Assembly (NCBI GenBank): GCA_038087015.1
Contig: JASBNA010000003.1
Span: 434,001 to 498,000, forward strand
Reading direction: 5' to 3'
DNA length: 64,000 bases
Source of the DNA: Cerrena zonata
Lineage: Eukaryota; Basidiomycota; Agaricomycetes; Polyporales; Cerrenaceae
Positions within the stretch are counted from its first letter, which is position 1; each line of letters opens with the position of its first letter. This document shows positions 5,424-35,575 of the stretch, piece by piece. A program made the position numbers and the translations under genes. The notes under the pieces were generated by a model that made no database searches, had not been told where the DNA came from, and worked only from the letters and a program-made list of their open reading frames with translations.

Positions 5424-8400
5424 ATGGAACAGGTTAAGGAGATCCCTCCAAGGGATGGTTCTATACCTGTTATGCCTGGCTTCATCGACTTTCAAGCTCA
5501 ACACCACCCGGACCATCCATGGTTCATATTTCCATCAAAGTCTGACCCACAAAACACGACATCCATAACATTTGCGGAATTTGCAATGGCAACGCATCGA
5601 ATTGCTCATTTTATTAGGCCTGAGAGGTTAGGAAGTGACGACGAAGTCGTTGTCATTCTTGTCAACTGTGACATTGTGCTATATGTCGCTCTCTTAGGAG
5701 GTATCATTAGAGCCGGACTAGTCGTCAGTACCGTTCCCCTAATGCATACAAACGATTTCCTAATCTTGATTATCCCGACAGCCTTTCCCGGTATCCCCCA
5801 GAAACTCACCAGAAGCGATTTGTGCGATGCTACAGAAGGTCAACTGCCATCGTATCATCACCCAACCTTCCGTAGCTTCTGTAATTTCTGCAGTCAATAC
5901 GCAAATGGCCAACCTCGATTATGAATTACAAGTCGACGATCTCCTGCCTCTCTCCAAGGCATTCCCCATGTTCGCCTCGGAAGGGCCAAAGAATAATTAT
6001 GTGGCCCCATATCCACCAAGCACCAGACCAATAAATCCTGACCGTGTTGTAATATACATTCATTCTTCGGGATCTACTGGGTTCCCTAAACCGATACCGC
6101 AGACGGAAAAAATTAATCTACAATGGTGCAAAACTTGTGAGCCATGTCGTTTTCTTAGCAAGAAACAATTACTAATTAGTTGGTAGCTCACGTAGAGGCA
6201 CATATAGAGCATCAATTACGCTCTGCAGGGATGTTGTTACCAACATTCCATCTCATGGGCACTCTTGCTCAGCTCTATTACCCAGCTGCGACAGGGCTTC
6301 CTGTTGCTGTCTTTACTCCACAAGAACCGCTACCTCCACACATTCCCAATCCCCAGAATATACTGGAAGTTGTAAAAGTCGCGAAGTGTACTGCACTAAG
6401 CACAGTTCCTACGTTTCTGGAGGTACGTTATGCATTAGCCCTGTGTAGGATAACCCTATAAACTTATTTCTTAGCAATGGGTGCAATCACCGGAAGCAAT
6501 AGAAGTATTAAAAACCATGAAACTTGTCGTAAGTGTCTTTTTTTTACTCGTAAAGGCATGCGTCTCACTCTCGGAAATAGAGATATGCAGGAGGGCCCTT
6601 GTCTGTGAGAACAGGCGATCAACTTGTTGCAGCAGGTGTACACCTCGCTTCGTCATTTGGGGGTACAGAATTTGGAGCGCCCACCGCAATCATGGATATA
6701 GACTATTCACTACCTCCAGACGCTCCTGTTCGGACAAGAAATGATTGGGCATGGGTACAATTTATTGACAAGGTAAAAATACGATGGATAGATCAAGGCG
6801 ATGGAACTTACGAACTTCAATTCTTGGTATGCAGCCGTTCTTTTCACTGTAGCTACGAATATCATAACTGAAGACTCGGTAGACTTGTGATACTCACCAA
6901 CCAGCTGTTGAAAATCTACCTGATGTACGAGGGTATGCTACAAATGATCTATTCGAACCGCACCCGTGGAAGACAGGGCTATGGCGTCCGTGAGTCTACG
7001 AGCGTAATTTCAATGTGGCGAATGATTCTATGTTACGCCTTCCGCCTAGGGTTGCTCGTCTAGACGATGTCATCGTACTTGGAACAGGTACGTATCTCGC
7101 TCTACGGCTTCGTGGATCTCTGAACGGACATTATTGCAGGCGAGAAAGTCGTTCCACTTCAACAGGAAGCGCATATCACTTCGGTTCCATACGTGACCGG
7201 TGCAGTCATATTCGGTCGCGGAAAAACCCAGTGTGGTGTTCTCATCGAACTATCTGAGAGATCCGCATTCGATCCTAGTGACCAGAGTCTTTTGATAGCA
7301 TTTCGAAACAAGATATGGTATGTATTTCAATTGGGTGGGCTAGTCATTTTTATAGTTCTAACATCCTCCCGAGGCCTCATGTAGAGGAAGCAAATAAATT
7401 AGCCCCTCAATTCGCCAGGATTTTCAAGGAAATGATTCTTGTAACCGACCCTACAAAGCCGATGACGCGTTCTGGTAAGGGAACTGCTCAACGTCGAATG
7501 GTTTTGAATGCATATGCCGACGAAATCGAAAAGCTGTAAGATATCTCTCGTCATTTCGTAACATCACCTCACAAGTCTTTAGGTATCAATTGGTGGAATC
7601 GAGTTCGTCCTTGAAGAATATCGCTTCACCAGTATTCTGGGATGCATTCGAAATTGAGGCGTGGTTGTGCGAACTCGTTGCTTCAATACATGCAGAACGA
7701 AGGCTTAAACCCAACCAGGACTTCTTCGAACAAGGACTTGACAGGTATGTTCATTTCAGTGGATAAACCATCTTTATATTTATTCCAACTACCATCGCGT
7801 TAAAGCCTAAGTGCAACATACCTGCGTAACCGCATTATGACCACTTTACGACTATCTTCTGCAGTACATATCAAGGAGGCAGCTTCCCAAATTTCTCAGG
7901 ACTTCGTATATTCCCATCCCACAATCCGACTACTTGCAAGGGGGATTCGACACCTTCTACAGCACCCTGGAAACTCTGAAAGGCAACAAAAGTCGCTCAT
8001 CCACTCACTGATTGACAAGTACACCCCACGGTTGCCTGACGTAGAGTCGACTGCATTGGCGGTAGACACCCCCGTTGTTGTATTGACAGGTTCGACTGGG
8101 CATCTTGGTTGCCAGATACTTGCATCTCTACTAAGTCAACAGAAAGTGACTAGGGTGTATACTTTCAACCGCGGGGAAGAGGTATCGAAACGACAGAAGA
8201 TTTCTTTCAAAGCTGTAGGACTTCCCCTCACACTGCTGGAAGACCCAAGGTTGGTACAGTTGCAATGTGAGCTGGGTGCCGAAGGCTTAGGTCTGTCGGG
8301 TGAGCTCTTGCAAGAAGTAAGTAACGATGCGCGTAATCACTGTCTACGCTAATTTTGTTGACTGACAAATCTGCTCTCAGGTAAGATCCACGGCGACCCA

Positions 8401-9433
8401 CATCATACATAACGCTTGGAAAGTGGACTTCAATCTTTCATTACTTTCGTATGAAAGCCAGATTGCGAGTACTGTAAACCTTCTGGAGTTTGCACTGTCT
8501 TTCTTGCATGAACCCCATTTCCTTTTCACATCCTCCATCTCTGTTGCGTCATACTGGGATACCCGCCTAGGGTCTGTGCCAGAATCGGTGCTTGAGATAA
8601 CAGATAGCATAGAAGAGCATGGAAATGGGTACGCTGGATCGAAATATGTTATCGAACACGTGAGCTAGGATAAAACACCTTACTCATACTCGCGTTGCTT
8701 AACATCCCTGTCAGATTCTCGCAAGAATAAATCGCACTGGTGTCATCAAGACTACGTCTCTTCGCGTTGGACAGCTGTCAGGCTCAACACAAACCGGCGC
8801 TTGGAACCCAAATGAATGGGTACCGAGCATTATCAAGTCTGGTATCGCACTGAGTTGTTTGCCCACTCGGGATGAGGAAAGCTGACAAACTGTCTTTAAT
8901 TCTTTATGGCCTGTACTGATTGAGATAATCTAGGCCGTTTACTGGATTCCTATCGATATCGCAGCACAAACGATAACCGAAATCACGCTTTCAGGCTCAA
9001 AATGTGATCTCATGAACATTGTCCATCCACACCCCGTCTCGTGGAATGATATTTTTACTCATGCTGCTACATCGTCTCTATCGTTATTAGGGCTTCCGGT
9101 AGAGCTCGAACCTTATGTTGCGTGGTTGTCTAAACTGGAACAACTCACCACAGTACCGACTGAACATGACCTTCGAAGTGTGGTGAGTGTTCATTTCGCC
9201 TCTGCGTTTTTGTATAGTCGTTTAAGCCAAACCCTCAACAGCCCGGTTTGAAGATTCTTCGCTTCTTGAATAATCTGGAAAAACGATCTACGAATGGCGT
9301 TTCCAACCCTCTCCAGTTCTCCACCTCTAACACTAAAACAAGTAGCACGACCTTCAGAAATGCACCTCAACTCGATGCTCAACAAGTGATGAATTGGTTT
9401 TCATACTGGCAAAAAATTGGCTACGTAGGTTGA
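5424..9433 (+). CDS. NRPS-like adenylate-forming reductase (A-T-R)
   Basis: Fifteen exons sum to 3,231 nt (1,076 aa) with all phases consistent. The adenylation domain (about residues 15-530) shows SSGSTGFPKPI (A3-type P-loop), PTFHLMG, and GVLIEL near its end. The carrier domain shows FFEQGLDSLSATYLR near residues 600-620, with the phosphopantetheine Ser codon split by an intron (7744/7806). The terminal reductase has GSTGHLG for NADPH and the catalytic YAGSK (near 8632). Such enzymes activate a carboxylic acid as AMP ester, load it on the carrier and release it reduced as aldehyde or alcohol. Substrate unknown; a fatty acid is inferred from the neighbours. Odd point: the intron 8877-8933 has GA instead of GT at its 5' end. 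If it is not spliced, translation stops at 8883. Confidence 0.9.
8877..8933 (+). other. Non-canonical GA-AG intron in the reductase gene
   Basis: The exon before (to GAG at 8876) and the exon after (from 8934) are in phase and restore the conserved reductase sequence across the junction. The 57-bp gap has a normal acceptor (TCTAG) but begins GAAAGC where GTAAGC would be expected. A T-to-A change in the donor is the simplest reading; a base-calling error is possible. Confidence 0.65.
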
Positions 9434-9938
9434 CGAATTTGTAGACCCCGTATGTACCATATCCAATATGAGATCATCATAACCCGGCGCACGAAGAGTC
9501 ACTGTCGACTCCGATGGCAGTAACAACAGTCACCACTCTACGCCGCTGGGGTTCCCCGGTCTTGGTACGGATCTCAGATCAGGTCTCGGATCAGACGCTG
9601 GAAGCTCACATGACATTAAAAGGATGATAGCTAGGAGAACTACGATAGAGGAGCAACTTGAATAACTAGTGATGCACAGCAACGTGTGGAAAGCAGGTGA
9701 AGGAGTGATAAATATCAGAAGGGAAGCATGGAATAAAAAAGAGGGAAGCGATAAATGTGAGTGGGAGAAGGTCCGACAGGACCTCCCGACGCTAGCGCAG
9801 ATAAGTGTTGACCTGTCATTGAGAGTGCGATACCCAGAGAGTTAGGAGTGCACTGAGCGACGCATGCAATCGATGATGACATACCCATAATGTTAGTCGA
9901 CAGTGTGGGGCTGACTCTCAGGAGGCAGGAGGTCAAGG
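9434..9938. other. 3' flank of the reductase / left flank of the retrotransposon
   Basis: No gene. Holds the reductase 3' UTR and, at an undetermined point, the 3' end of the retroelement (which runs on the minus strand). A short inverted repeat AGGTCC-GACA-GGACCT lies near 9767-9784. I could not recognise split direct repeats or terminal inverted repeats here by eye. Confidence 0.4.
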
Positions 9939-11720
9939 CTAGGATCGAGCTGGAGGAATGGGTAGAAATTGCCATTGAAGGAACTCCTCATGGACAGCGG
10001 GCCGGGCCTGGATGAAAGGGGCCATTGTATCACAGTTCTTGCGGAGATACGTACGAAAGGCATCACTAGCCCAACGGCCCTTTGACTTTACAATTTCAAA
10101 CTGCACTCCACGCAAAAGGAATTCCAGTGTTCCTCCAATGCGGAAAGAATGGCCATGTAGGGAGAGGTTTTTCGGCTCCCAGGCGCCATTGATAGTTTCC
10201 ATGAGTACCTTCTTGAGTAGTGGGCAGCGTTTGCCTTTCTTATCCGTGTAGCTAAAAAGGTGCTCGCCTACTGCTGGGACGTTGATCTGCAGTTGGTTCT
10301 GAAGGGCCGCCTCCGGGTCAGAGTCATCGTTCTGTTTAGCCCAGAAAATCTCTTCGCCATCTTTTCTACCTTCACGTTTACTGGCCTTGGTAGAGGGTAA
10401 GCGGATCACTGTGACTTGGAAGCCATGCCGTGTTTGATGAGTGTGGACACAGGAGACATCCGGATGTAGGTTTGCACGGAAAGCTTTTTGTGAGGGAACT
10501 GTTAGCTCACCTGAGCGAGCCATACCCCAGAACAGGGACGTTACGCAGGCCCAAACTGCAGCATGCAGTGGTGTCGAGAGGTCAAGCTGACCGCGAGCAA
10601 GTAGGAGATATTCGACTAGGCAGGGGGCACGCGGCTTTTTGATGGAGGTGCTGGGTTCTAGTTGGCGGGATCCCTTAAGGGCCGCTAGGTAATGATGCTC
10701 TTCGATGTTCCATGGGAGGCAGTGTAAGATATGCCAAGCACGGACACCTGCGACGTAGTTAGCAACTGCACTTCCCGAGTACCCTCCTGTGAGAGCAGCA
10801 ATGAAGAGAAGAATGGTTAGATTGGACGCTGGGGCTCTGTCCGCCTCGCTGATTCCTTCGGCATCGCACCAGACATGGTAGACTAGGAGGCCAGCTCCAT
10901 AGACCCTCTTGGTGTCGTCCCCCCAAGCACCACCAAGTACCTGCTGTAGGCGATCGATGTTCTGTGGTGAGAGTAGCTCGCTTTCTGAGATCGTTGATTT
11001 TTGTGGATACCAACGGCCCATCCGGTCTTCTGCCAGGCAGTGTGGGCGTAATGACGAGCAGTTAGGGGTGAGGCTTGGAGGATAGGGGCGAGGCTTTCTG
11101 GCGATTGTAGTGGTCAGAGGCAGTGGCCGGTAAAGCCTTGAGTTAGGATGAAGAGCGGAACTGCTTGGAGAGGTAGTAGTGGTCAGTGTTCGACTGCTCG
11201 TTGGAAGAGAGGTTGGGCTCAGAGTGGATTCCACGGTTGTGGGAGCGAGGGGAGGACAGGTTGATTGATGGTTGATCAAAGCTGACCCGATCAAAGTCGA
11301 AAGGTTCGACCCATCGTTGAGCTTCAAGGGGGACTTCGATTGCGGGAAGTAGGAGGGAGCGAGGTGGAAATTTGCCTCGAGATGGGGCATCGGCTGGGTT
11401 GTGTTTGCTGGGGATATAGATGGTCTGTACGTCGTGGCCTGAGTCATCAAGGAAGAGGCGAAGTCGTTTGAAAATGTCATTGACTGGAACAGATCGGCTT
11501 CGTCCGTTCTTCCAACCCCCGATGACACCTTGGTTGTCTCCAAAGACAACGAAGTTTGCAGTGCTTCTGCAGCAGGTGATAACAGATCGCACCAAGAGCT
11601 CGAATCCAATAGCCTCTGCCCATGCGATGTTCCTCCCCTCGGATTCCCATCCCTCAATGAGTCTCCATGCTCTCCATCGATTGTTGATGCATATTCCAAT
11701 GCCCACTCCGGAACTTGCAT
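9939..11720 (-). CDS. Retrotransposon tyrosine recombinase
   Basis: Open frame of up to 593 codons; the recombinase domain fills roughly its last 370 residues. Active-site features read directly: an Arg in GMARSGELTV (box I), the HxxR motif in HGHSFRIGG (box II), and a Trp and probable nucleophilic Tyr in GRWASDAFRTYLRKN. This is the pattern of phage-integrase-like recombinases found in DIRS, Ngaro and Crypton elements, which join circular element DNA to the genome. The first part of the frame overlaps the reverse transcriptase frame in another register and is Ser/Thr/Pro-rich, so the true start is uncertain. A start within the overlap or expression by frameshift or re-initiation is possible. 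Confidence 0.85.
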   Translation of the reverse strand: MQVPEWALEYASTIDGEHGDSLRDGNPRGGTSHGQRLLDSSSWCDLLSPAAEALQTSLSLETTKVSSGVGRTDEADLFQSMTFSNDFASSLMTQATTYRPSISPANTTQPMPHLEANFHLAPSYFPQSKSPLKLNDGSNLSTLIGSALINHQSTCPPLAPTTVESTLSPTSLPTSSRTLTTTTSPSSSALHPNSRLYRPLPLTTTIARKPRPYPPSLTPNCSSLRPHCLAEDRMGRWYPQKSTISESELLSPQNIDRLQQVLGGAWGDDTKRVYGAGLLVYHVWCDAEGISEADRAPASNLTILLFIAALTGGYSGSAVANYVAGVRAWHILHCLPWNIEEHHYLAALKGSRQLEPSTSIKKPRAPCLVEYLLLARGQLDLSTPLHAAVWACVTSLFWGMARSGELTVPSQKAFRANLHPDVSCVHTHQTRHGFQVTVIRLPSTKASKREGRKDGEEIFWAKQNDDSDPEAALQNQLQINVPAVGEHLFSYTDKKGKRCPLLKKVLMETINGAWEPKNLSLHGHSFRIGGTLEFLLRGVQFEIVKSKGRWASDAFRTYLRKNCDTMAPFIQARPAVHEEFLQWQFLPIPPARS

Positions 11721-13440
11721 CTGAGAAAGCAGCTAGGTGAACGTATGAGTCTGGGTCTGTGAGTTGACGAGGGGGCGGAGGTGAGGAGAGGGTTGTATGC
11801 CACCATCGAAGATCATCGATTGAGCGTCGGGGAGGCGTGCGAGGCATGAAAGGAGCGTCGTGGAAAACTCCGAGCATGGCTTCTAGATGAATAAGGAAAG
11901 CACGGCCCGCTCTTATCACCAGGGAGGCATGTAAGAGCTTGCCGTATAGCTTCTGGAGTTCTTTCAGGTCGTGAGTACGACGTGACTGCCAGGCTTCAAT
12001 CGCTTTGAGATATTTGAGTCTCTTTGGTTCGCTAATCATGACCGTTTTTTGCTCGATGTCCCAGACTAGTCCAGTGAAGAGAACAGAAGAGCTCCAGGGT
12101 TGATCTTTTTCAGTTTCCCATGGGATACCTAGCTCATTCGACAGTCTGTCTATGTCTTCCAGGTTGCAGGTATATTGAGCATCTTCGGGTGAGCGAGGGG
12201 ATTCTGCAGAGAGGTCTCTGATCGGGAACGTCATATCTTCATGGAATTCTTCCACTGAGCCATCCGCTCTGACTCGCCCACCGTACCAGATTCGCCCACC
12301 TGTCTGATGTTCCCCTCCATGTTCTTGGATAGATGCTCTCCATTTCTTCCGCTTTAGGTTGTACTCTTCTAAGTGCTCGCGCAGGATGCGAAAAAAGTTA
12401 TGGTCATCCACCCATTTGATCACCGGACCAATGCCTCGAAATCGCATAATGTCCGTACCTGCATCAGCAATGAAGCCGAAGGTTCCTGCACAGCCGGAAC
12501 CACCAAAAAAGCCCTGTGTGTCAAGGACGAACTCATCTCGGTCGTTGGACAGTCTTAATACCATTCCTGGCCACTGCTCAGCTTTCACTGGAAAGTTACG
12601 ATATGCTTCTGAGACATCACGCACTGCTCCTTGGGAGCCTGGCGGAAGGTGTAGGATGAGTTGGACCATTGCATTGAATGTGCCCCAGGTGCATGGAAAT
12701 TCATCGGAGTTAACAAAAGAGTTTATAGAGCGGTAATCGGCAGATGGATTATGAGGGAAAGAATAGTTTTGAACAAGACGGAATACGTGAGGTTTATGGG
12801 GTTTTGGGACAAGGGAAAGGGGGGAGGATTGGAAAGGGCCAATTAAAGATTCTAGTTCCTGCCTAGAGAAAGGCCCAATATAGCGGCCGCGATTAAACTC
12901 ATGCTGTATGATACGGTCAAACTCCTGCTTATGCAGATTAATAGATGAACTATTCGCCGGGGTGCGAGTGGTGTGAATAGGCAGAATACCGACATCAAAG
13001 CCGGTCCGAAGACTATGTACAATAGTGGGATGCTTGACGTCCAGGCTAGCTTTCGTGAGCCAGTGTTCCCAGGCGTCTGGCTTGAAGGGAGTGAGGGTGT
13101 TAGACCCTCTCGACAAGATGGCATTGCTGAGCACCATGAGCCTTTGATCCACATCCTGAGCACTCGTGGATATGTCGCTTGTTGCCTGCACGACAGCCAC
13201 TAAGGTTGAAGTCAATACAGACGTAGAGACCTTTGATGGTGACAATCCTGCCCTTGGCGTCTCGTTTGGAGTAAGAGGGCACGGTCGGGTCGGATGCGAT
13301 GTGGTCTTTGGTGCAACGTCGCTTGTCGTGGTCTGTGACCCCAAGACAGATGAGACATGCCGCGCTGGAGTTTGAAGAGCCATGAAAGTGGTTCTGAGAT
13401 GAGAAGGTACGTTTGTGGGAGGGCGGGTTGGTGTCCTCAC
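11143..13440 (-). CDS. Retrotransposon reverse transcriptase / RNase H
   Basis: Open frame of 765 codons. The RT core shows FRLVQNYSFP, DVSEAYRNFPV and the active-site box WVDDHNF (a variant of YxDD). An RNase H-like domain follows with FSDASSGVGIGI, AWAEAIGFELL, FGDNQGVIGGW and IPSKHNPADAPSRG, giving the acidic residues and the terminal block of this family. Together they would copy element RNA into DNA and remove the RNA strand. The frame overlaps the gag-like frame at its start and the recombinase frame at its end, as is usual in DIRS-type elements. No stop codons interrupt it. The exact start is unknown because the first 340 bases overlap gag. Confidence 0.87.
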   Translation of the reverse strand: MRTPTRPPTNVPSHLRTTFMALQTPARHVSSVLGSQTTTSDVAPKTTSHPTRPCPLTPNETPRAGLSPSKVSTSVLTSTLVAVVQATSDISTSAQDVDQRLMVLSNAILSRGSNTLTPFKPDAWEHWLTKASLDVKHPTIVHSLRTGFDVGILPIHTTRTPANSSSINLHKQEFDRIIQHEFNRGRYIGPFSRQELESLIGPFQSSPLSLVPKPHKPHVFRLVQNYSFPHNPSADYRSINSFVNSDEFPCTWGTFNAMVQLILHLPPGSQGAVRDVSEAYRNFPVKAEQWPGMVLRLSNDRDEFVLDTQGFFGGSGCAGTFGFIADAGTDIMRFRGIGPVIKWVDDHNFFRILREHLEEYNLKRKKWRASIQEHGGEHQTGGRIWYGGRVRADGSVEEFHEDMTFPIRDLSAESPRSPEDAQYTCNLEDIDRLSNELGIPWETEKDQPWSSSVLFTGLVWDIEQKTVMISEPKRLKYLKAIEAWQSRRTHDLKELQKLYGKLLHASLVIRAGRAFLIHLEAMLGVFHDAPFMPRTPPRRSIDDLRWWHTTLSSPPPPRQLTDPDSYVHLAAFSDASSGVGIGICINNRWRAWRLIEGWESEGRNIAWAEAIGFELLVRSVITCCRSTANFVVFGDNQGVIGGWKNGRSRSVPVNDIFKRLRLFLDDSGHDVQTIYIPSKHNPADAPSRGKFPPRSLLLPAIEVPLEAQRWVEPFDFDRVSFDQPSINLSSPRSHNRGIHSEPNLSSNEQSNTDHYYLSKQFRSSS

Positions 13441-14992
13441 TAAGTGAGGGGGAACGACGACACTTTGGATCTTTTCGTTCAGGCTGGTGTGAGTTACGGG
13501 AACCTCTGGTCCGCTTCGAAATCTCTAGGTCTTGTTTCAGGCGGTCCACCTGGACTTTGACCAACCAGACATAGAGAGTCACGGTAAGGTGCATGAAGCA
13601 GGATGGAAGGTGTATGGTGAGGCGCGGCGGGGACGCATGGAATACAGCGAGGCAAGGCAGGTGCGTTAAGCACAGCGAGGCAAGGCAAGGCAGGTGCATA
13701 TAGCACGGCGAGGCAAGGCAAGGTAAGGGTGCGTGAGGCACGGCAGGGATAGGCAGAGGCAGACGTGCATGAAGCACAGTAGGATAGGCAGAGGTGCGAG
13801 TGGCGCAGGCAGTAATAGATGCAGAGCGTGGTGGGCAAATGTGATAGGTCGGGTGAAGGGGAAGGAGAGAAGGTGCTGTTAGTATGACGTTACATGTCGA
13901 GGAGGCAGAAGATCGTACCTCTTGACGCAGCTGATCAGTATGAGTATTTTCAACGTAGCGCAGGCAATCATCTACAATGTGCTCTTGGATCTGGGAGATG
14001 TCCCACACCCGGACTTCTGGGTTTGCTGTCGCCGATTGCAGCGTTTCATGGAACTTATGTCTCATGATGGCTTGGTATCGGATAAGGGCAGGCTTGCCGG
14101 AGAATGGTTTCTCGAAGGTAAAAGGATGGTTCTCGATGCGGATGAAGAAGGTTGTCAGAGCCTGGATGTACTCTACCGGCCAGCCCGTGATCGAGAGGTA
14201 GCGAAGATACAGCGATTTGGCGGCTGCAAGCTGCTCCCAGGTGAGGTTGAGGTCGGGCACAAACTTCTTGCCTGGTCGAGCCGATTCCTGGGTTTTGATG
14301 GCTATCGCCCCCGAATCAGAACCTCTGACGAGGCTGAGAGCCTGGTCGTCGCTTGAGCGGAAAGAGGAGGCAGCTTCGGCACATGCTTCAGGAGTGAAAG
14401 GGTACAGTTCGACATATTTTCGCTCTCGTAGTCGATTGATGTATGCTTGCTGAGGGATGGGATCGATCTTCGACGGGGGCGGTGCCATTCTGTCTATGGG
14501 AGGGAGAGCCGTCTTACCCGTCCCTGCAGCGATCGCTGGGGCGGGAATGGGTTGCTCGGGTTGCTGCTGTGGATTCGTAGCTCCAGCGCCACCATTACCT
14601 GCTGCTGCCCCCGCTGGAGGTTGTTCTGGAGGAGGTTGCTGCTGGGCATCCCAGGCATCGCGTTGGGCTTGGTTGTCGTCCTTCCAGCTGCTAAGGAGGT
14701 GCTGTACAACCTCGTCGTCACTGTGAAACTGGCCTGAGTCAATGAGGAGCTGTCGAACTCCCGCATATATCGGACTCGCGAAGTTCAGGGCCACTTGAGT
14801 GTGCGGGTTTACGGGAGGATGCTGGGAACTATTTCCAAATCGAGTATGTTTGAGTATGTTTGTTGAAGAAGGCGCTGGGCCTAGTCCAGCGACTCGGATT
14901 TGCCGAAAGGACTTCGTTATTGCAACACCATGAAAAAATCGGTACATCATCGGTGGGCTTGTAATACCAGGACTCCGATATGTAGTGTACAA
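13100..14992 (-). CDS. Retrotransposon gag-like protein with Cys/His fingers
   Basis: Open frame of 630 codons. The N-terminal part is Gln/Pro/Ala/Gly-rich (around residues 110-165). The middle resembles a structural gag-like helical region. A C-terminal Cys/His-rich segment (CLICLGVTDHDKRRC, then CIDFNLSGC and CSGCGSKAHGAQQC) looks like zinc fingers for nucleic-acid binding. About residues 359-481 (13550-13918) are low-complexity Leu/Pro/Cys/His and interrupt what would otherwise be a continuous coiled coil (LRQE joined to VDRLKQDLEISKR). That stretch has GT at its start and AG at its end and is 369 bp, a multiple of three. Confidence 0.75.
   Translation of the reverse strand: MYTTYRSPGITSPPMMYRFFHGVAITKSFRQIRVAGLGPAPSSTNILKHTRFGNSSQHPPVNPHTQVALNFASPIYAGVRQLLIDSGQFHSDDEVVQHLLSSWKDDNQAQRDAWDAQQQPPPEQPPAGAAAGNGGAGATNPQQQPEQPIPAPAIAAGTGKTALPPIDRMAPPPSKIDPIPQQAYINRLRERKYVELYPFTPEACAEAASSFRSSDDQALSLVRGSDSGAIAIKTQESARPGKKFVPDLNLTWEQLAAAKSLYLRYLSITGWPVEYIQALTTFFIRIENHPFTFEKPFSGKPALIRYQAIMRHKFHETLQSATANPEVRVWDISQIQEHIVDDCLRYVENTHTDQLRQEVRSSASSTCNVILTAPSLLPLHPTYHICPPRSASITACATRTSAYPTVLHARLPLPIPAVPHAPLPCLASPCYMHLPCLASLCLTHLPCLAVFHASPPRLTIHLPSCFMHLTVTLYVWLVKVQVDRLKQDLEISKRTRGSRNSHQPERKDPKCRRSPSLSEDTNPPSHKRTFSSQNHFHGSSNSSAACLICLGVTDHDKRRCTKDHIASDPTVPSYSKRDAKGRIVTIKGLYVCIDFNLSGCRAGNKRHIHECSGCGSKAHGAQQCHLVERV
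13550..13918 (-). repeat. In-phase intron-like low-complexity tandem repeat within gag
   Basis: On the + strand this stretch contains repeated words such as GCGAGGCAAGGCAAGG and AGGCAGAGG between about 13620 and 13800, in degenerate tandem units of some 25-30 bp. Read on the element's strand, it begins GTACGA and ends TCCAG. Removing 369 bases keeps the frame and joins two coiled-coil halves. It may be a spliceosomal intron or a repeat expansion. Confidence 0.55.
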
Positions 14993-17446: not shown

Positions 17447-17970
17447 AGTATATATCAATTATGACCCTTTGACTCACAATTCGAATGGCATTATGTCTGG
17501 TTTCTGTGCCAGTCCAAGTGTCTGTACGGTGGGACTTGCGATGAGGGTACAGGATCCAAGTCTATTGTATTTGTTTCTGAACGGAAATGATGCTAGAGGC
17601 TAGAGTGCGCGTGTTTGCGACTCACATAAAATTAGTTTTATCAGGTGAACATATTCTCAGGTTGACGGCCGACTACTACATATCTTCTACAGCCATCTCA
17701 CAAGTGCTTGGTCGTCTGATAGCCTATTATGATGGGCCCGGATTCTTTCTTTGCCCAATATGGTCTCTGTTCCGATGACCAAACTGAATCAAGTGACTAC
17801 CGCCGTTGTACTGAACTCGGATCAAATCCATTGGTACCTTCAATAAGCGAGTAACAAAGAACTCTCATACTTACCTCCAAGTGTACAGACTTTTACCGTG
17901 CCAAATATGCATCGAAGGTGCGTTCATTTCCGGTCGGCCTCTGATTGGTTACCTAACTAAATCCGTGGTC
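17447..17970. other. Spacer between desaturase A and the stand-alone reductase
   Basis: No full gene. Translated from 17741, a short stretch reads DSFFAQYGLCSDD, faintly like the carrier-domain motif DFFEQGLDS of the upstream reductase, and the frame entering 17971 looks like a diverged carrier-to-reductase linker (17881-17970). This suggests the next gene descends from a longer A-T-R enzyme. Weak evidence. Confidence 0.35.
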
Positions 17971-19506: not shown

Positions 19507-19870
19507 TAGCATATAACGTCTAGAAATCAGCAAATCACAGTCCATTTTTTGGTTATAGAAGCAAGAACAGCGCGGATATAAAATCAGAAGAACATGCCGT
19601 AAAGGCATGATGACAGGTTGACAGATAACACTATAAACGACAGGTATGATCGGGGATATCCTGCATAGCAGCGCCATGCATCCCTACATACCACATCATT
19701 ACAAGCCAAGCGAGTTTGAGGACAGCGATTATGCAAGAAAGAGCAAAGCAGAAAGAAAAAGCCATGAAAGCAAGGTGGATAGCTTGAAGCAGATTATTGG
19801 GGAGTATGACGTTACGATGAGCAGTAAAAGATGGCAAGGTCGTCAAATGAGTCGCGTAGAGGTATTAGGA
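19507..19870. other. Tail-to-tail spacer
   Basis: Lies between the 3' ends of the free reductase (+) and the small heat-shock protein (-). Purine-rich near 19735-19790. Nothing else seen. Confidence 0.5.
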
Positions 19871-21740: not shown

Positions 21741-23800
21741 CTAAACAGCATGTTTCCCCTTGCGCCTTGCTACAATTGTTCTGGACGTCGCCATGAATGT
21801 CCCACCACAAGCCATAGCGACCTGATAAGAAAGTGGTTTCAATAGGAATGAGACGCTCAGGGTCAGATAACCACTTACGCCTGCGTAGATCGATGGTTTC
21901 CACCACGTGGGGTTACTAGAGCCCAAGAGGGCACCTTCAATAGGTGGACCTGCAGGGATTGAGACACGACGCTCATTATAAAGATAAGCTGATATTATGA
22001 CTCACCGGCCAATCCACCGAGACCAAGTAACGTGAACGCGATGCCCATACGTGCTCTGGACACATGATTCAATGATCATGCAGGGTCTGATAAAACCTTA
22101 TTCACATACCCTATTTCGGACACATCTCTCGCTAACGACGAGTAGACCGGGGCAAGGAGTGTTACAACTTCGAATAAAGTTTAGTAGTCTGGATAATGAC
22201 TTATGAAAGTGAGACTTACGAGAACCGCCGAAAAGCCCGAAAACTACGGAAAAGGCTACTTCACCGCCGACATTCTTCACGCCTAACCACCCGAAGACAA
22301 GGATGGCACACGAGTACATCGAGGCAGCGAGCATGTTTATGACACCAAAGCGTGCCGCTACGAAAGTAGGCACGATACGGCCAATCACAGATACGCCGTT
22401 CAAAATAGTCACCTACGTACATCATCAGAGGGATAATTGGGGCTAATTGGTGACCTGAATGGTATTGCGACTTACGGTATAGAAAGCGAATGTGGTGTTC
22501 AGTCCATGAGTGATTGCGTGAAATTGGAGATAGAAGATGGGGAAATAGAATCCAGAAGTAGACAGAACACCGCTAGAGAAAACAGTAACTATCAACAGTG
22601 CTCCAATCAAACGATTATCAGTTAGAACGTACCCGCAGACAGCGCATACATACGCCCAATCGCGGGAGAACCTCGTTGCACTACTCCAGATACCTAAGAA
22701 ACCTACTGCCTTCTTCGGCGGCAGTCTAGTGCGCATCATAGCAAAGGCGATCACTAGTAGACCTAAAATAAGACCGGCGCTAGCCCGGACACCAGTAGCA
22801 AACCCGACTTTTGGATTGTTGAACAAGTTGTTCAGCATGATAGGATGTAAAGTGGCTCCGAGGGAAGAACCTGCGGCGACAAGTCCCATCGCAATCGGAC
22901 GCCTTCGGCTGAAGTAATGTGATACAATGCTCAAGGAGGGTATATATGTCATTCCCATTGCAAGACCGGCTCCTAGACCTTGGGCAAGGAAAATCTAGGT
23001 ACCTGTTAGCTACAATAGACAGAGGAAGACACGCTAACATACTTGATAATACTGTTCTGGTTTTGCTAAAGAAAGCATGAATAGACAGAAAGCGAGCAAG
23101 ATTGTTCCGCCTGCAATGAGGAAATAGCTGTGAAGATACACCATGAATTATCAACACGATTGTCATTATAGGTTTGGACTGACAAGTATCCTCGATCAAA
23201 GGCCGCTCCCGAGATGAAACCCGTAGACAGAACGAGAAGCAACTGAACGCTTCCAATCCAGCTAGAAGGAAACATGTGAGCTATCCGGGTATGACAATAG
23301 GATGCCTAAGATACCTGATCTGTGATGACGTAAATTTGGTCAAGTAGTGTCGTTCGTAGAAGTCTGCATAAGGATTGTCGGTAAACGGTTACTTTGCATC
23401 GAAAATAGGTATACCTTGGTATACAGCAAACGAGTTGGTATATCTTCGTAGATTTAGATGAATAAGGGCTCATTTAACATTGAGATAAGCATCAACTTAC
23501 CCAAATGTACAAAATTGCACTAACGCGCTGCAAGAGGGGGATATTAGGAGGAACATTGGGTGACATGACTGAGTAACATACGCGCCGGCAACAGTGAGCC
23601 ATGCTTGAGCACCACCTTCAGGAAAGGTGGGACCAGGAGGAGGTTTCGGAACCTCGGATACAGGAATGTCGGGCGAGATTTGCACAACGGGCTCGCCCAC
23701 ACCCTTTTCATTCACTGCGACAGAGCTTCCCTTGCTTTCAGACTATGCAAGACATGATGAGCATGATCCTCATGCGGCTGAACAAAATAGGACTGACCAT
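21741..23800 (-). CDS. MFS transporter 1, monocarboxylate-transporter-like
   Basis: A many-exon gene. The N-terminus after a short Pro-rich cytosolic tail reads FPEGGAQAWLTVAGA and LVQFCTFG; later MGMTYIPSLSIVSHYFSRRR and GLVAAGSSLGATLHP, and a C-terminal stretch NPTWWKPSIYAG. This is the fungal MCT-like (SLC16-type) branch of the major facilitator superfamily with about 12 helices, whose members move monocarboxylates and other small molecules across membranes. The start codon ATG (23800-23798) stands alone before a 55-bp intron (23743-23797) and the reading frame resumes with SESKG. The stop is at 21741-21743. Inference: export or uptake of the cluster product. It shares the start-codon intron and sequence with transporter 2, so the two are paralogues. 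Confidence 0.8.
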
Positions 23801-27430: not shown

Positions 27431-29016
27431 CTATATGTCCGATTTCACCGCTCGCATCGCCTGACCCTTTCTATCCTTGTAAAATAGAATTCCGCCGCTG
27501 TCTTCAACGAACATGCATCTGTAAAAAGTGCGATAGAGAGCGTAAAAGGTGTTCTATTTCCCATATGATCTATCAGGTGTCCAGATATGAGGAGAAGAAG
27601 GACTGGCTGGACGTACGGTTGAGTCATAATTGTAGTCATCCTTGAGAATAGGTTTAATTGCGTTGGTCACTTCAGGTTGATTATCTGGTGGGAGAAAGTC
27701 AAGGTTGGCAAGTTGTGGACTGCACTGATTTACACGTACAAAAAGGGATGTTAGGAAACAGGTGATGAGCAACATGGTCATGGGAAATCTAGAAAGGATT
27801 TGAAGTTAGTTTTGTAAAACAATCGGAGTGATGTATAACTTACGTTATGCAAGAAAAAGCGGCCTACCCAACCCAACAAGGGTCGATCTACAGTGGCGAG
27901 AGCACCCCGTAACCAGTTCCATTCTCCCGAACGATAATGTGGAATCGTAGGGTCAGAATGTTGCAAGTAAGTTAACATCACTATCCAATGATTTGTGATC
28001 TTCCATTCATATTTAGTACCGAGAGAGATATACAAGAGCATCAACTGAGAACTCACAAGATATGGGATGAAGTATAACTTCACAACGTTGAGAAAACCAG
28101 AAGTACGGGACCATTGTATGAGCACAAGGGACATGATGAGGACCCCAACGTCTGAGAGAATTATCAGATGGCGATCTTTTGGTCTGAATAGGGGAGACAT
28201 TGGAGAGAAATGCTACGATAGGAGTTAGCACGATGAGAAATGTTGAACGGAAAGCCGACCTACGTTTGTTCCTTTCGGATATGCACGAGACCCCATTGCA
28301 TTGTAGAAAATATAGCTGTGCCATCCGAGTAGTTGCATGAACACAAGGCGAATTAAAACGAAAAGTGGCGCATCCTCCAAAAGCTCTGTGTAGTCCATCG
28401 GAGTGGCTTTAGACTCCTCTGGCAGCTTAAGTTCTGAGCGAGTTGGAGGCACAAAATTCTCATCTCTTTCGAGCGAGTTAGTGAATTTCTTCAGAGATAG
28501 GGGTATTAGGTAAATACGTAGGGATAAAATTCGAGAACGTACGTGATGCATATAATGTGTGTACCTCCATGCAAAGTGTGGCACTAGTAGGAAGGAGTGT
28601 AATACGAAGCCGATTGTGTAATTCGCTTCGTAGTACTCAGAGAGATTCCCATGGCCTGCTTCGTGCGCTGTGGAGTAGCCATGTTAGAATGCTCTAGAGA
28701 AGGAGAAACATGAATGCATACCTAAACACCAAAAGCCAGCCCAAGCGATGCTTTGCCAGTACCAGTAGAAGACCCAGAGCGTCCCTCGTGTCAAGGGTGG
28801 CGCCGCTAGAAGTGCTTCTGAATTGATATACCCAGCAGCATAGTAGAGCAAAGCCGAAAACGCTAGGTCCCTTGCGATGTAAATAAGCGAGCGGCCGAGC
28901 CTCTTTGACCTAAGATGGGGAGGAATGGCTGCTTGTATATCAGAGAACCTGACAGACGTAGGCGCAAATGGCTGCGCTCTACGTGCGTCGTATATGGGGT
29001 CCACAACCACTGCCAT
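27431..29016 (-). CDS. FAD2-like fatty acid desaturase C (diverged)
   Basis: Eight exons on the minus strand: 28722-29016, 28543-28667, 28264-28488, 28057-28212, 27844-27999, 27740-27788, 27617-27684 and 27431-27553, sum 1,197 nt, 398 aa, intact. Histidine boxes differ from A and B: HEAGHG, HYMHH and HVAHH, with MLTYLQHSDPTIPHY. The family and fold are clear. The changed first two boxes show it is a separate branch and may have another regio- or chemoselectivity (inference). An in-frame ATG 14 codons upstream (29058) is an alternative start. The tail FVEDSGGILFYKDRKGQA matches A and B, but the last intron of those genes is absent here. Confidence 0.9.
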
Positions 29017-29058
29017 TGGAGCTAAAGGAGGTGATAGAAGATGGAGAATTAGATGCAT

Positions 29059-29697: not shown

Positions 29698-31731
29698 CTA
29701 CAGAGGAGGGTATTTTCCAGAGAGTCCGTCTTCCACATCATGCTCTTCCGCAGGCGTGTCTATCTGATGCGACTGATTATAAGGTAAGAATGATCATCAG
29801 CAGAGGTTGACAATATATGAACATGTCCGAGTCCTACCTTGTTACTAATGTCATGCATACTATCATCGTGGTCGACCACCTTGGACGTTTCCTGGAATAT
29901 TTCTATGTGACGCTGTACATGACAAATCAGAATGAGGCGTGTTAATCATTATTGTCATGTCACTTGCCATAGTAGTGGGCGGAGCAGGATTTGATCGCAC
30001 CCTGTCAGATAATTCGGTTGAGTTCAAGGTGTTGATCTTCTTCCGAAGAATTTGGCGGGCATTGAGCCTATTTAGTGCAAAATCGGTCTGCTGCGATCAA
30101 TTGGGGTTGAAGTGGAGTACGTACGTTCCGAGGAATGAATTTGCATATACTGTAATATGCAGTCAGCGAGCCATATTGAGCAAGCAAAATATGATGCTTG
30201 AGATAGTGTACTCACGTTTACTGGATAATTGAACAAGTCCGGCAAACAGTAGACTTTCTTTCAAGAATACAAACTAGAAAATATGAGTTTTGACCGTACT
30301 TTATTACACATATTACTATCTTGGACTTACCGTCAATACAATTGTAATGGAAACCAGCCTAGAAAATTGACATTATTTTCTGAAAGAATTATAAGACTCT
30401 AAAAATAACCCACATAGTAATCGCTCCAGTGTTAACAGCATACGCGATGAGCGAATGAATAAGATGGTCTGTTCTGTATTGCCATCAGTGACATCCTGGT
30501 GTGATGCGCATGAACTACGTACTCCTTGAAACCGCTACGACCTCTGCGAAGATAATACATGAGTGTCAAGGCGATCAGCAAATCCACTGCAGCAGAAAGC
30601 CCGAGCCCGGTACTAAGCGTGAACTACAGAGCATCGTGTCAAGAATGTAACAGGCGTAGCGAGTAATAGATCAAAACGCACCAGAGGTCCCACTTTGGCA
30701 CGGAAGACACTCCATGTACCGAGTCTGTATGTCAGGGCCGACGTGGCTAAAAGGATAGTGATAATGTTCATATCAAACCCACAGAACAGGACGACAATGA
30801 ATTACCTAGACCGAATGCTGAGAGGTGGGTGTTAGCGTCGGTGCATATAAAAAAATTAAATGGGACTTACAAATTCGAAGCAGAAGCATAAAGCCCTAAA
30901 GAGCATTGTTGGTCAAAGTAATTCATAGATTTAAAGCGACTCACGATCAGGACAGTGAGGGCGATATTCCTCTTGCTCACTAGGGTCAAGGATCAACAAC
31001 GTGTTGACAGTACAACTTAGCTTGGCACTTACGCATGTAGATCCGCATCACATAGAACCTACAGAATCTTCAGAACAGACCGATCATTCATCAAGTTTAA
31101 GCTACTCACCCCTGAGCGAATGCAACAATGACCATCTGAACGGGTCGGACATAAGTCATCAAGCCACCGTCAATAGACGCGAAACCCACTTACTCCTGAG
31201 GTAACACATGCCTATCATCCGAGATGATCGTTAGTGTTAGCTAAGTGTGTATTGTAATCCGGCCAGTAGACTTACCCCCGCGCTCCTGCAAGTGTGCGAT
31301 CAGCGAAGATCATCGGAGGTATCGTGTCATGGCTGTATACTCACCAAATGATATGCCCAATTGCACCGACTTGTCCGAAGTCAGTAATGAGATAGAAATA
31401 TGTCATATGAATCGTAAAGACGGTATGCGCCGTTTCCAGCACCCTGAAATCATGGTGTCAACATACCGATCCTGATTGTTCGTCAAAGAAACAAAGGACT
31501 TACATCACACAGGCAACAACGCCCCGAAGGAACCGAGTATCCTCGTGGCCATAATTTAAATAGTAAATGTACGTTTGTGCGACTGTGATTCCATACAGTC
31601 TATAGGAAGGAGTCGGTTAATCAAAGATTCATACAGAAGCCAGTTAAAGGTTGTGGCTCTCACATAAGAGATATACATATCTCTATAAAGAAGCCGCTCA
31701 TGAGCTCTTGAATGGTAGGACCTTCAGCCAT
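29698..31731 (-). CDS. DUF6534-type seven-helix membrane protein
   Basis: Many short exons on the minus strand. Starting at ATG 31731: MAEGPTIQELMSG, then LYGITVAQTYIYYLNYGHED, VLETAHTVFTIHMTYFYL, FYVMRIYM, LSKRNIALTVLI, ATSALTYRLGTWSVF, TLSTGLGLSAAVDLLIALTLMYYLRR, and a tail ending LSGKYPPL. This is the layout of a basidiomycete integral membrane family (DUF6533/6534, about seven helices) of unknown function. Exons of the core are in phase. The joint near 29930-30160, just before the cytosolic tail, was not fully resolved. It lies within the candidate cluster between desaturase C and transporter 2, but this family is large in mushrooms and often unlinked to metabolism. Confidence 0.75.
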
Positions 31732-33477: not shown

Positions 33478-35575
33478 TTAAATCCAGAAGCTATCCCTGC
33501 GCCGTGCGAAGATAATTCGAGCAATTCCAAAGAAGATGGCTCCGGCTGCGACAACACACTGGAACACGTAAGGGAGTTAGATGCGTTTCGTGAAAAGTTG
33601 GCAATGAATACACGTACGCCGCTGAAAACGACTGGTTTCCACCAGATGTTATCGGGGCCGAGTAGTGCAGCACCGATTGGGACACCTGAAATGGACATTA
33701 GCGAATAGGTCTAAAGGTGCATTACTATTGCCTGTACATACCAATAAACCCAGCGATACCTGAACATGATTACGTTTAATACAGGTACTCAAGAAGAATG
33801 TGTATCAACATACCGTTCAAGAAGTGACATATTCCCATGCGCACTCTGGTAAGAGGCAGGAACATCAGAATCGGGACTTTTTCTGTTCTGACGATTCGAC
33901 TTACCCAATTTCTGATACGTCTTCAGCAAACGTCGCGGTTAAAGGAGCAATCAAAGCAACAACTGTGAAACGTAATCAGTGACGCGGGTTAAAATACTAT
34001 GGTGTCATAGAACTCACATCCGCCGGAGAAGAAGCCATAAAGAAGTGCGAATACAACAGTGCCTGGTACCGTTTTGATACCAGCCATCCCGAATAACACC
34101 GCGGCGGTTCCGGTGGAAATAATGATCATCATGTTGAAAACCCCAGTACGATGACTCAACCAATTGGGAATGATTCGTCCGAAGAATGAACCGGCATACA
34201 AGATGGGGAGCTGAAAACGGACATCAATCAGTTTAGGTAGGTTTCATAAATAAATTCGATGGACGTACAGTATCGAAAGCGAAATCGGGACTAAGGCCAC
34301 GCGTGATAGCATTAAGTTGAAGGAAGAAGATTGGGAAGAATGCTCCGAGGACAAGGCAGAAAGACCTGGGTACGAAAAATAAAGATCACTACAACCTGAC
34401 TCTGAACAACTTGTAGTACTCACCCGATGATTGTGGGAATATAAGCTGGGTCCCGAATAAAGCGTTTGGTCTGTGTGTAGAGCAAACTAGCACTGACATG
34501 CTTCTCCTTGGGTGGCAATCGGGTCCTCATGATAGAGCAAGCAATGACTAAGAGGCCGAGATTGAACCCAGCACTGGCTCGTATAGCCTTTGAAAACCCA
34601 ATGGACTCAATGAGGTGATTGAGCATGAACGGGTGAACGATAGTCCCAATACAGGATCCGGACGAAGCAATACCCATGGCCAACGCGCGACGCTTGTCAA
34701 AGTAATGGGAGAGAATACCAAAGGACGGCACGTAGGTTAAGCCGACACCTAAGCCGCCTGCCAAACCGTGTGACAGGAAGACCTGTTGTACTGTTAGAGT
34801 GTATCAGAGGAATGGTCATACTGAACGAACCTGATAATACTGGTGGGGATGGGCTAGGGAAAGCATAAACAAAGCAAGCACGAATAGCACACATCCTGTT
34901 GTGTTTAGGGCATAGCTATAGATGGAGAATTAGGGAGGTTTCGTTCGGGATAAGGAAGTAATGGGATACATACAAGTAGCCTCTATCGAGACCATAACCA
35001 GTGAGAAAACCCGTAGATAGCACTAGTAGGACTTGGATACTTCCAATCCAACTATCATAGCAACGTCCATTCAATACATTTGATCACAACCGCATCATAG
35101 TGCGGGATCATACCTGATTTCAGAAGCAGTCTTATTACTCAAGAACCCTCGAAGATAGAACTCTGCAGACCGAATGAGAAGAATTCAAGAAGACGAATAA
35201 AGATTCTGTACCTTGGAAAACACCGAACGACTGTGTATAGCTGATCACGAACCACCGGTAAGTAAACTACCATCACTGTAACTGGTCTAGAAGACTCACC
35301 CGAACGCGCAGAATTGGACCAGCCAACTGTTGCAAAGTCAAAAAGGTAAATCCCATCGGCGAAGAGAAGCACTTACGCTCCGAGGACTGTCAGCCAAGCT
35401 TGCAACCCACCCTCAGGGAATGCAGGTTGGGGAGTACCAGACCGCTCAGAAGGCGGGGCAGACGTAGCTGCCTTCTCGATGCTGCTAAGAGTATCAACCT
35501 TCACGTCGGACTAACGGGAACGAAGGTTATCAGCATGAGGAGTTCTCTGTCGTGAGGAATATCAAAGTTTACCAT
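33478..35575 (-). CDS. MFS transporter 2, monocarboxylate-transporter-like
   Basis: Paralogue of transporter 1. Blocks in order: FPEGGLQAWLTVLGA, VGLTYVPSFGILSHYFDKRR, GIASSGSCIGTIVHP, IRASAGFNLGLLVIA, IPNWLSHRTGVFNMM, PIGAALLGPDNIWWKPVVFSG and a final helix CVVAAGAIFFGIARIIFARRR. MCT-like branch of the major facilitator superfamily, predicted in plasma or organelle membrane. The ATG at 35575 is followed at once by a 62-bp intron (35511-35572), then SDVKVDTLSS. The stop is at 33478-33480. The N-terminal tail is short and Ser/Pro-rich. Marks the right end of the candidate cluster. Substrate unknown. Confidence 0.8.

What the first reader, a model, noticed from the sequence alone, without database searches (positions are those of the whole stretch)
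5424..35575. Candidate polyacetylene or polyunsaturated-aldehyde/alcohol gene cluster
Seen: one A-T-R carboxylate reductase, one free R domain, three FAD2-like desaturases (two sister-like, one diverged), two paralogous MCT-like transporters and a DUF6534 protein within 30 kb, flanked by housekeeping genes. Known: diverged FAD2-type enzymes in plants act as acetylenases and conjugases, and mushrooms make C8-C14 polyyne alcohols, acids and amides from linoleic/crepenynic acid. Inference: stepwise desaturation followed by reductive release. I know of no described cluster with this make-up.
Basis: partly seen in the sequence, partly recalled or inferred. Interest (0 to 1): 0.9.

Follow-up and report, generated by a model that had tools for sequence, protein, structure and literature searches.

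The report
Fungal desaturase and carboxylate-reductase gene cluster
A wood-decay fungus carries a gene cluster, echoed elsewhere in its genome and apparently in related fungi, that pairs unusual fatty-acid desaturases with an aldehyde-forming reductase; it may make a lipid-derived defence chemical, but the product is unknown and part of this copy is broken.

Summary
The window is Cerrena zonata (Polyporales): my models of desaturases B and C equal QCA50_002732 and QCA50_002733 letter for letter. The reported genes exist. Corrections: a ~5-kb mobile element sits between reductase and desaturase A; desaturase A has one frameshift; the A-T-R gene lacks a splice donor and stops inside its R domain; the 'free R' is a T-R remnant without an A domain. 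B, C, both MCT-like transporters and the DUF6534 gene are open.

Co-localisation looks real. A-T-R, type-I desaturase, MCT and DUF6534 recur at C9:628-671k of this genome; A-T-R, MCT and DUF6534 again at C9:503-518k. C-clade desaturases share a contig with an A-T-R gene in 5 of 7 testable hits (Cerrena, Somion, Cristinia, Amylocystis, Steccherinum) against 1 of 13 other type-II hits, Fisher p=0.007. B departs from its family at 23 conserved positions, shared with Somion.

Best reading: a lipid-derived metabolite ending in an aldehyde or alcohol. Polyacetylene is possible, unproven: plant acetylenase signatures fail or do not discriminate. My ten library searches listed no described cluster of this make-up.

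The parts
5424..8885 (+). A-T-R carboxylate reductase (adenylate-forming reductase), reading up to an in-frame TGA; = QCA50_002724, 932 aa
   Evidence: Pfam AMP-binding, AMP-binding_C_3, PP-binding, NAD_binding_4 on P0241; my model 99% to P0241
8877..9433 (+). Damaged 3' part of the A-T-R gene: no GT donor at the conserved phase-0 intron place; homologous R-domain C-terminus continues at 8934-9433 beyond the stop
   Evidence: Somion P0242 continues here
9939..14947 (-). Mobile element between A-T-R and desaturase A (recombinase-like and RT/RNase-H-like reading frames by eye; Pfam finds only one sub-threshold match, DNA_pol_viral_C)
   Evidence: 11 other matches at 65-70% identity in the genome
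15739..17446 (+). Desaturase A, type-I FAD2-like, with one frameshift between 16048 and 16053; His boxes HECGH, HHRHH, HVIHH kept
   Evidence: sister of Somion P0046 (UFBoot 99)
17818..19506 (+). Free R gene: T-R remnant of an A-T-R enzyme, no A domain; R domain open over 5 exons from 18010
   Evidence: 39-44% to A-T-R reductase domains
19871..20779 (-). HSP20 (small heat-shock) gene inside the cluster; probably a bystander
   Evidence: PF00011, E=2.6e-9 on a 142-aa piece; gene bounds approximate
21741..23800 (-). MCT-like MFS transporter 1, 447 aa
   Evidence: PF07690; open model; relatives beside two other A-T-R loci, but also at C25, C48, C78
25077..26793 (+). Desaturase B, intact, strongly diverged type-I FAD2-like; = QCA50_002732; 9 exons, last intron GC-AG
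   Evidence: 100% to P0001; 78% to Somion P0002; 23 conserved positions changed in both
27431..29058 (-). Desaturase C, intact, type-II FAD2-like; = QCA50_002733
   Evidence: 100% to P0121; 10-member clade, UFBoot 100 / SH-aLRT 99
29698..31731 (-). DUF6534 multi-spanning membrane protein (family called possibly GPCR-like by machine learning in PMC12842992); about 19 exons
   Evidence: PF20152 E=5.4e-21; 57% to the DUF6534 gene at C9:631k
33478..35575 (-). MCT-like MFS transporter 2, 436 aa
   Evidence: PF07690; open model; 52% to transporter 1

Best explanation
This is one copy of a recurring cluster for a lipid-derived specialised metabolite in polypore fungi. Proposed working: type-I and type-II FAD2-like desaturases (B, C and, where intact, A) further desaturate an acyl chain drawn from oleate or linoleate, with B and perhaps C doing an altered reaction (a new double-bond position, conjugation or a triple bond). 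The acid is then freed, possibly shortened, loaded by the A domain onto the T domain of an A-T-R enzyme and released by the R domain as an aldehyde or alcohol. The MCT-like transporters move acid precursor or product; the DUF6534 membrane protein senses or handles it. Shown: gene content, recurrence in this genome, contig sharing with A-T-R genes in relatives, divergence of B, and damage to A and the A-T-R gene here. Inferred: that desaturases and reductase act in one pathway, the substrate, the order, the product, and that C9 copies supply the damaged steps.
For: Second cluster at C9:628-671k: P450, DUF6534, alpha/beta-hydrolase, MCT, type-I desaturase, A-T-R, two more hydrolase-like genes, A-T-R, three more DUF6534-like genes. 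Third locus C9:503-518k: DUF6534-like, degenerate-looking A-T-R, MCT, DUF6534. The window's A-T-R, Somion P0242 and the C9:657k A-T-R form one clade (local support 100). C-clade desaturases share a contig with an A-T-R gene in 5 of 7 cases, other type-II in 1 of 13 (p=0.007); without Cerrena and Somion 3 of 5 against 0 of 11 (p=0.018); the Steccherinum contig is only 58.8 kb. A, B and C each pair with a Somion protein (UFBoot 99, 100, 100; bootstrap not settled). B changes 23 positions that are over 90% conserved among 118 type-I relatives, shared with Somion P0002; 14 of them are fixed in 117 or 118 of 118, and many lie near His boxes 2 and 3. Counted singly B departs at 32 such positions and Somion P0002 at 28, against 2-12 in ten other type-I proteins, A included. 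One fungal A-T-R, Fub8, reduces an unsaturated aliphatic acid, trans-2-hexenoic acid (PMC9605436, passages).
Against: Nothing shows that the desaturases and the reductase share a substrate. Fungal A-T-R enzymes of known function reduce aryl, amino, aryl-aliphatic or aliphatic acids (PMC9605436, passages); 'fatty' does not occur in that paper's main text. A-T-R, MCT and DUF6534 occur without a desaturase at C9:503-518k. The other A-T-R loci in this genome (C8, C41, C68:148k, C84) have no desaturase match close by. In single-exon scores the window's DUF6534 matches C8:383k, far from any A-T-R match, at least as well as C9, and MCT relatives also lie at C25, C48 and C78. The A-T-R gene and desaturase A are damaged here. 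Type-I and type-II desaturases on one contig are common in mushrooms (29 of 51 type-II hits), so B beside C need not mean specialised metabolism. Somion linkage rests on a 3.3-Mb contig, so it is weak evidence of tight clustering.
Confidence: 0.5

Rival explanations
1. One reading: a polyacetylene pathway, with B and/or C acting as acetylenase or conjugase on linoleate or crepenynate, then reductive release as polyyne alcohol or aldehyde.
For: Diverged FAD2-type desaturases make such bonds in plants (PMC3554562, passages) and a basidiomycete culture makes dehydrocrepenynate (PMC10744906, passages). B is diverged as expected for changed chemistry. C-clade enzymes have Pro at +3 behind His box 3 (10 of 10; Ser in 100 of 108 other type-II), as plant conjugases do (PMC3554562, passages). 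Three desaturases with an adenylating enzyme and a carrier parallel bacterial polyyne clusters (PMC8406139, passages).
Against: Sequence signatures do not discriminate: 117 and 113 of 118 type-I enzymes share Gly before box 1 and the (D/N)VX(H/N) motif, C lacks both, and Pro at +3 is also usual in type I (115 of 118). The mushroom alkyne review PMC10636002 does not mention Cerrena (0 occurrences in the main text).
Confidence: 0.22
2. The A-T-R enzymes reduce a non-fatty acid (aryl, keto or amino acid), with MCT and DUF6534 as their true partners; the desaturases are separate lipid genes that landed and duplicated in the same region.
For: A-T-R, MCT and DUF6534 occur together without a desaturase at C9:503-518k, and further A-T-R loci have no desaturase near. 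Known fungal A-T-R substrates include many aryl and amino acids (PMC9605436, passages). A splicing-factor-like gene and HSP20 interrupt the clusters.
Against: Contig sharing of one particular desaturase clade with A-T-R genes in four further genera, and a desaturase 3-4 kb from an A-T-R gene at C9.
Confidence: 0.25
3. Extra copies of ordinary Delta-12/Delta-15 desaturases raise linoleate or linolenate, for membranes or C8 oxylipins, and are only loosely tied to the reductase.
For: A is close to ordinary type-I enzymes (2 departures). Type-I and type-II genes share contigs in 29 of 51 type-II hits.
Against: An ordinary type-I/type-II pair is at C30:444-449k; B has 32 departures from conserved positions, 23 of them shared with Somion; B and C are kept across genera at 78% and 77% identity.
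Confidence: 0.18
4. A relic: the cluster is decaying in this strain and makes nothing by itself.
For: Frameshift in A, missing donor and stop in the A-T-R gene, T-R remnant, mobile element between them; the third A-T-R locus also looks degenerate.
Against: B, C, both transporters and DUF6534 are open, with almost all introns canonical. Two A-T-R genes and a type-I desaturase (= P0004) remain at C9; the A-T-R models run to the end of the R domain, though some of their junctions are uncertain. Assembly error at the two single-site lesions is not excluded.
Confidence: 0.2

Closest known systems
Fungal adenylate-forming reductases / carboxylate reductases (A-T-R, NRPS-like)
   Same: Domain order AMP-binding, PP-binding, NAD_binding_4; the three best PDB sequence matches lie on the R domain, 8aep first
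   Different: No characterised enzyme noticed among the 120 listed relatives; known substrates are aryl, amino, aryl-aliphatic and aliphatic acids (PMC9605436, passages); no C18 substrate seen there
Plant diverged FAD2 acetylenases, conjugases and epoxygenases
   Same: Membrane diiron desaturase with three His boxes; B is a diverged paralogue of ordinary type-I enzymes
   Different: Plant acetylenase signatures are absent in C and non-diagnostic in B; no activity data
Cantharellus formosus acetylenase (Blacklock 2010; only its reference-list entry was seen; full text not held)
   Same: Basidiomycete acetylenase (from the paper's title)
Bacterial polyyne cassette (FAAL, ACP, three desaturases, thioesterase, rubredoxin; PMC8406139, passages)
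   Same: Adenylating enzyme, carrier domain and three desaturases together
   Different: Here adenylation, carrier and release are fused in A-T-R; release is reductive; no thioesterase or rubredoxin noticed in the window; desaturases are eukaryotic FAD2-like
Phlebia radiata adenylate-forming reductase genes Nrl1-8 (PMC6540522, passages)
   Same: Polyporales A-T-R genes of unknown function, several beside other metabolite genes
   Different: Passages seen name terpene cyclase, PKS and P450 neighbours, no desaturase

Membership tests
Fungal A-T-R adenylate-forming reductase | A, T and R domains in one chain | tested here: met
   Pfam on P0241; R domain truncated by the TGA at 8883
Fungal A-T-R adenylate-forming reductase | Complete reductase C-terminus | tested here: not met
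   Stop after ...LPTRDEES; Somion P0242 continues well beyond. The C9 A-T-R models run to the R-domain end
Fungal A-T-R adenylate-forming reductase | ATP- and NADPH-dependent reduction of an acid | not testable with these tools
   Needs enzyme assay
FAD2-type desaturase | Three His boxes HxxxH, HxxHH, HxxHH | tested here: met
   A, B and C keep them
FAD2-type acetylenase (plant signatures) | Gly before His box 1 | tested here: inconclusive
   B has Gly, but so do 117 of 118 type-I; C clade 0 of 10
FAD2-type acetylenase (plant signatures) | (D/N)VX(H/N) at -5 to -2 of box 3 | tested here: inconclusive
   B meets it, as do 113 of 118 type-I and 94 of 108 type-II; C (NISH) does not; C clade 3 of 10
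FAD2-type acetylenase (plant signatures) | Asn inside box 2 (position 3 of HRRHH, my reading of PMC3554562) | tested here: not met
   B HHRHH, C HYMHH; C clade 0 of 10
FAD2-type acetylenase | Makes a triple bond | not testable with these tools
   Needs heterologous expression
Bacterial-type polyyne cluster | Adenylating enzyme plus carrier plus three desaturases | tested here: inconclusive
   Present as A-T-R plus A, B, C, but A is frameshifted and the A-T-R gene truncated
Bacterial-type polyyne cluster | Thioesterase and rubredoxin genes | tested here: inconclusive
   None noticed among the models, which were read by eye; only selected proteins went through Pfam
Conserved biosynthetic cluster | Co-localisation repeated beyond this locus | tested here: met
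   C9:628-671k; 5 of 7 C-clade desaturases share an A-T-R contig against 1 of 13; gene order in other genomes not seen
Conserved biosynthetic cluster | Co-expression | not testable with these tools
   No expression data here

The most novel reading that the evidence does not exclude
A eukaryotic counterpart of the bacterial polyyne cassette: the A-T part of the A-T-R enzyme loads and carries the fatty acyl chain, diverged FAD2-type desaturases B and C install triple or conjugated bonds on it, the R domain releases it as an aldehyde, and the co-clustered DUF6534 membrane protein is a receptor for the product, so that maker and sensor of a lipid signal travel together.
Probability: 0.07. Interest if true: 0.9.

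Novelty: new variant of a known kind. Interest (0 to 1): 0.6.

Why it matters
Mushroom acetylenic compounds are well known chemically, but my searches listed no described gene cluster for them; the feldin paper still speaks of identifying polyyne genes in Fistulina as future work (PMC7692509, passages). A recurring desaturase/A-T-R cluster gives named, testable genes (B, C, the C9 A-T-R genes). It would also be a lead to the substrate of a large A-T-R family of unknown function in Polyporales and to a role for DUF6534 proteins.

Tried and rejected
Idea that A is the catalytically altered copy: rejected; its His-box-3 region (DVAHYHVIHH) is the usual type-I form and it departs at only 2 conserved positions. 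Idea that B falls outside the other type-I enzymes: seen with FastTree, not with the site-mixture model, where B joins A, C9 P0004, Somion P0002/P0003/P0046, Cristinia P0059 and Hermanssonia P0012 (8 rows; SH-aLRT 93, UFBoot 98 but SH-aLRT 27, bootstrap not settled); the join is moderate at best. Idea of a young retroelement insertion: the 11 other genomic matches are only 65-70% identical and no terminal repeats stood out, so age is undecided. Asn at residue 153 of B, three positions behind His box 2 (0 of 118 type-I), looked like the plant acetylenase Asn, but that paper most likely means a position inside the box, so I do not use it. AlphaFold model of B (pLDDT 86.8) and Foldseek (two PDB hits with E<=0.001, 8xqw and 8xks; one search names that molecule a fatty acid desaturase domain protein, FADL) agree with the desaturase fold; no coordinates were at hand to map the substitutions. 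First gene-finder settings over-predicted introns and were replaced. Stretches L036-L039 were fetched but not analysed.

Limits: only the best 120 of 405, 1228 and 523 hits were listed, so contig sharing may be missed. In one search I used 104 of 120, 99 of 120 and 90 of 120 rows; dropped were metagenome or contig-less rows and A-T-R rows from organisms absent from the desaturase tables. Contig lengths were typed from those tables. Genome sizes of 35-45 Mb in the Poisson check are assumed. The C clade was defined after seeing the window gene. Paper searches were judged from listings: all listed, none found, 20 of 24, 20 of 79, 15 of 482. One search was a submission turned down for its format.
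Full report
Identity and gene models. The window lies in a 55.5-Mb assembly at C3:434001-498000. My models of desaturases B and C equal the NCBI proteins QCA50_002732 and QCA50_002733 of Cerrena zonata letter for letter, and the A-T-R model is 99% identical to QCA50_002724; contig lengths agree for C9 and C30 proteins too. Gene structures come from a small gene finder written here and hand checking.

What is there. Pfam supports the A-T-R gene, B, C, both transporters, DUF6534 and the free R and HSP20. The mobile element was recognised by eye; Pfam gave one sub-threshold hit.

Damage. Desaturase A reads openly in two pieces that need a frame change near 16050. In the A-T-R gene, both C9 paralogues have a phase-0 intron behind LPLRNE/LPALEG; the window has no GT donor there and meets TGA at 8883, which is where the NCBI protein ends. 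The free R shows homology to A-T-R enzymes from the T domain on, and no A domain is found for it. Two single-site lesions could be assembly errors; I could not test that. B, C, the transporters and DUF6534 are open, with canonical introns apart from a GC-AG intron each in B and DUF6534.

Is the grouping chance? In this genome the window A-T-R protein finds A-T-R loci at C9:645-648k and C9:657-660k beside a type-I desaturase. Annotating C9:625-675k gave P450, DUF6534, alpha/beta-hydrolase, MCT (fused to the desaturase in the raw model), desaturase (= P0004), a splicing-factor-like gene, A-T-R, a small membrane protein, two hydrolase-like genes, A-T-R and three DUF6534-like genes (Pfam for five of them, one A-T-R among them; the rest by similarity or by eye). 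The A-T-R models there contain some uncertain junctions. The window's DUF6534 is 57% identical to the one at C9:631k and the MCTs are 41-42% identical to the C9 MCT. A third locus, C9:503-518k, has two DUF6534-type genes (Pfam for one), a degenerate-looking A-T-R and an MCT but no desaturase. Against: further A-T-R loci on C8, C41, C68 and C84 have no desaturase match close by; single exons of the window's DUF6534 match C8:383k and C35:357k with E-values as good as those for C9:669k and C9:633k; MCT relatives also occur at C25, C48 and C78.

Other genomes. Of named listed hits whose genome also has a listed A-T-R, C-clade desaturases share its contig in 5 of 7 cases (Cerrena, Somion, Cristinia, Amylocystis, Steccherinum; misses: a second copy each in Steccherinum and Cristinia), other type-II desaturases in 1 of 13; Fisher p=0.007. 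Without Cerrena and Somion it is 3 of 5 against 0 of 11, p=0.018. The contigs are 58.8 kb (Steccherinum), 190 kb (Amylocystis) and 892 kb with two A-T-R genes (Cristinia); with assumed genome sizes of 35-45 Mb the Poisson chances are about 0.01, 0.03 and 0.01. Somion's contig is 3.3 Mb and says little about tight linkage. Antrodiella P0130 had no listed A-T-R. Of 104 named type-I rows, 6 share a contig with an A-T-R gene (Cerrena, Somion three times, Cristinia, Heliocybe). Contig sharing is not gene order, which I could not read.

The desaturases. Two old paralogous families are common in mushrooms, and type II shares a contig with type I in 29 of 51 testable type-II hits; in Cerrena such a pair is at C30:444-449k. 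A and B are type I, C is type II. A, B and C each pair with a Somion protein (UFBoot 99, 100, 100, bootstrap not settled). C sits in a clade of ten (UFBoot 100 / SH-aLRT 99). B changes 23 positions that are over 90% conserved in 118 type-I relatives, shared with Somion P0002; many lie around His box 2 (W142A, S145I, H153N, D159S, Y162W) and before or in box 3 (H290Q, D329N). Counted singly, B departs at 32 and Somion P0002 at 28 conserved positions; ten other type-I proteins, A and the C9 enzyme included, depart at 2-12. Some of B's residues are those usual in type II (for example N329). The pattern argues for a changed, maintained function. Plant acetylenase signatures were tested and do not settle the chemistry (PMC3554562 passages).

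The reductase. The window A-T-R, C9:657k and Somion P0242 form a clade (local support 100) within eight Cerrena/Somion/Panus sequences (99) and 24 sequences from Cerrena, Somion, Panus, Steccherinum, Cristinia and one metagenome (99). The Amylocystis A-T-R on the desaturase contig belongs to another branch, so the partner A-T-R is not one strict orthologue. I noticed no characterised member among the 120 listed relatives. Known fungal substrates include aryl, amino, aryl-aliphatic and aliphatic acids, among them trans-2-hexenoic acid for Fub8 (PMC9605436 passages); Phlebia radiata has eight such genes of unknown function, several beside other metabolite genes (PMC6540522 passages).

DUF6534. 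One paper calls the family a possible new GPCR class on machine-learning evidence (PMC12842992 passages). At least 27 matches exist in this genome, so a single neighbour would mean little; recurrence at three A-T-R loci, and a fourth on C8, means more.

Interpretation. The best reading is a lipid-derived pathway in which desaturated, perhaps unusually desaturated, fatty acids are reduced by an A-T-R enzyme to aldehyde or alcohol. Polyacetylene is one possible product (0.22). The main rival is an A-T-R pathway on a non-fatty acid with unrelated desaturases nearby (0.25). In this strain the window copy alone probably cannot complete the A-T-R step. Extracts of C. zonata ICMP 16347 show modest antibacterial activity (PMC12825035 and PMC8450596, passages); whether that is the sequenced strain is not known to me, and no compound is tied to these genes.

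Literature. Searches of the held library for a mushroom polyacetylene or desaturase cluster, A-T-R enzymes, DUF6534 and Cerrena zonata listed no such cluster. Several listings were capped, and subscription papers, among them the Cantharellus acetylenase paper, are largely not held, so absence in print is not established.

Noticed in passing
window 9939-14947 (-): About 5-kb mobile element with recombinase-like and RT/RNase-H-like reading frames (by eye); 11 other matches in the genome at 65-70% identity.
   Followed up: partly
Loci L026-L030 (C9:628-671k): A second, larger cluster with two A-T-R genes, type-I desaturase, P450, three hydrolase-like genes, MCT and four DUF6534-type genes; it may be the better target for bench work.
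   Followed up: partly
Loci L035 and L040 (C9:503-518k): A third A-T-R locus with MCT and two DUF6534-type genes; its A-T-R gene looks degenerate.
   Followed up: partly
Proteins P0059, P0124, P0131, P0252: Cristinia sonorae is filed by NCBI in Agaricales, yet its desaturases and A-T-R proteins group with Steccherinum and Cerrena: a misnamed genome or gene transfer.
   Followed up: no
C30:441.7-449.2k (loci L032 and neighbours): Three desaturase genes: two on the minus strand (type II by similarity) and a type-I on the plus strand, head to head with the nearer type-II gene.
   Followed up: partly
   Followed up: no
window 26654-26719 and the DUF6534 gene near 29.8 kb: GC-AG introns in desaturase B (last intron) and in the DUF6534 model.
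   Followed up: no
window 23743-23797 and 35511-35572: Both MCT-like genes have the start codon alone in the first exon, split from the rest by an intron.
   Followed up: no
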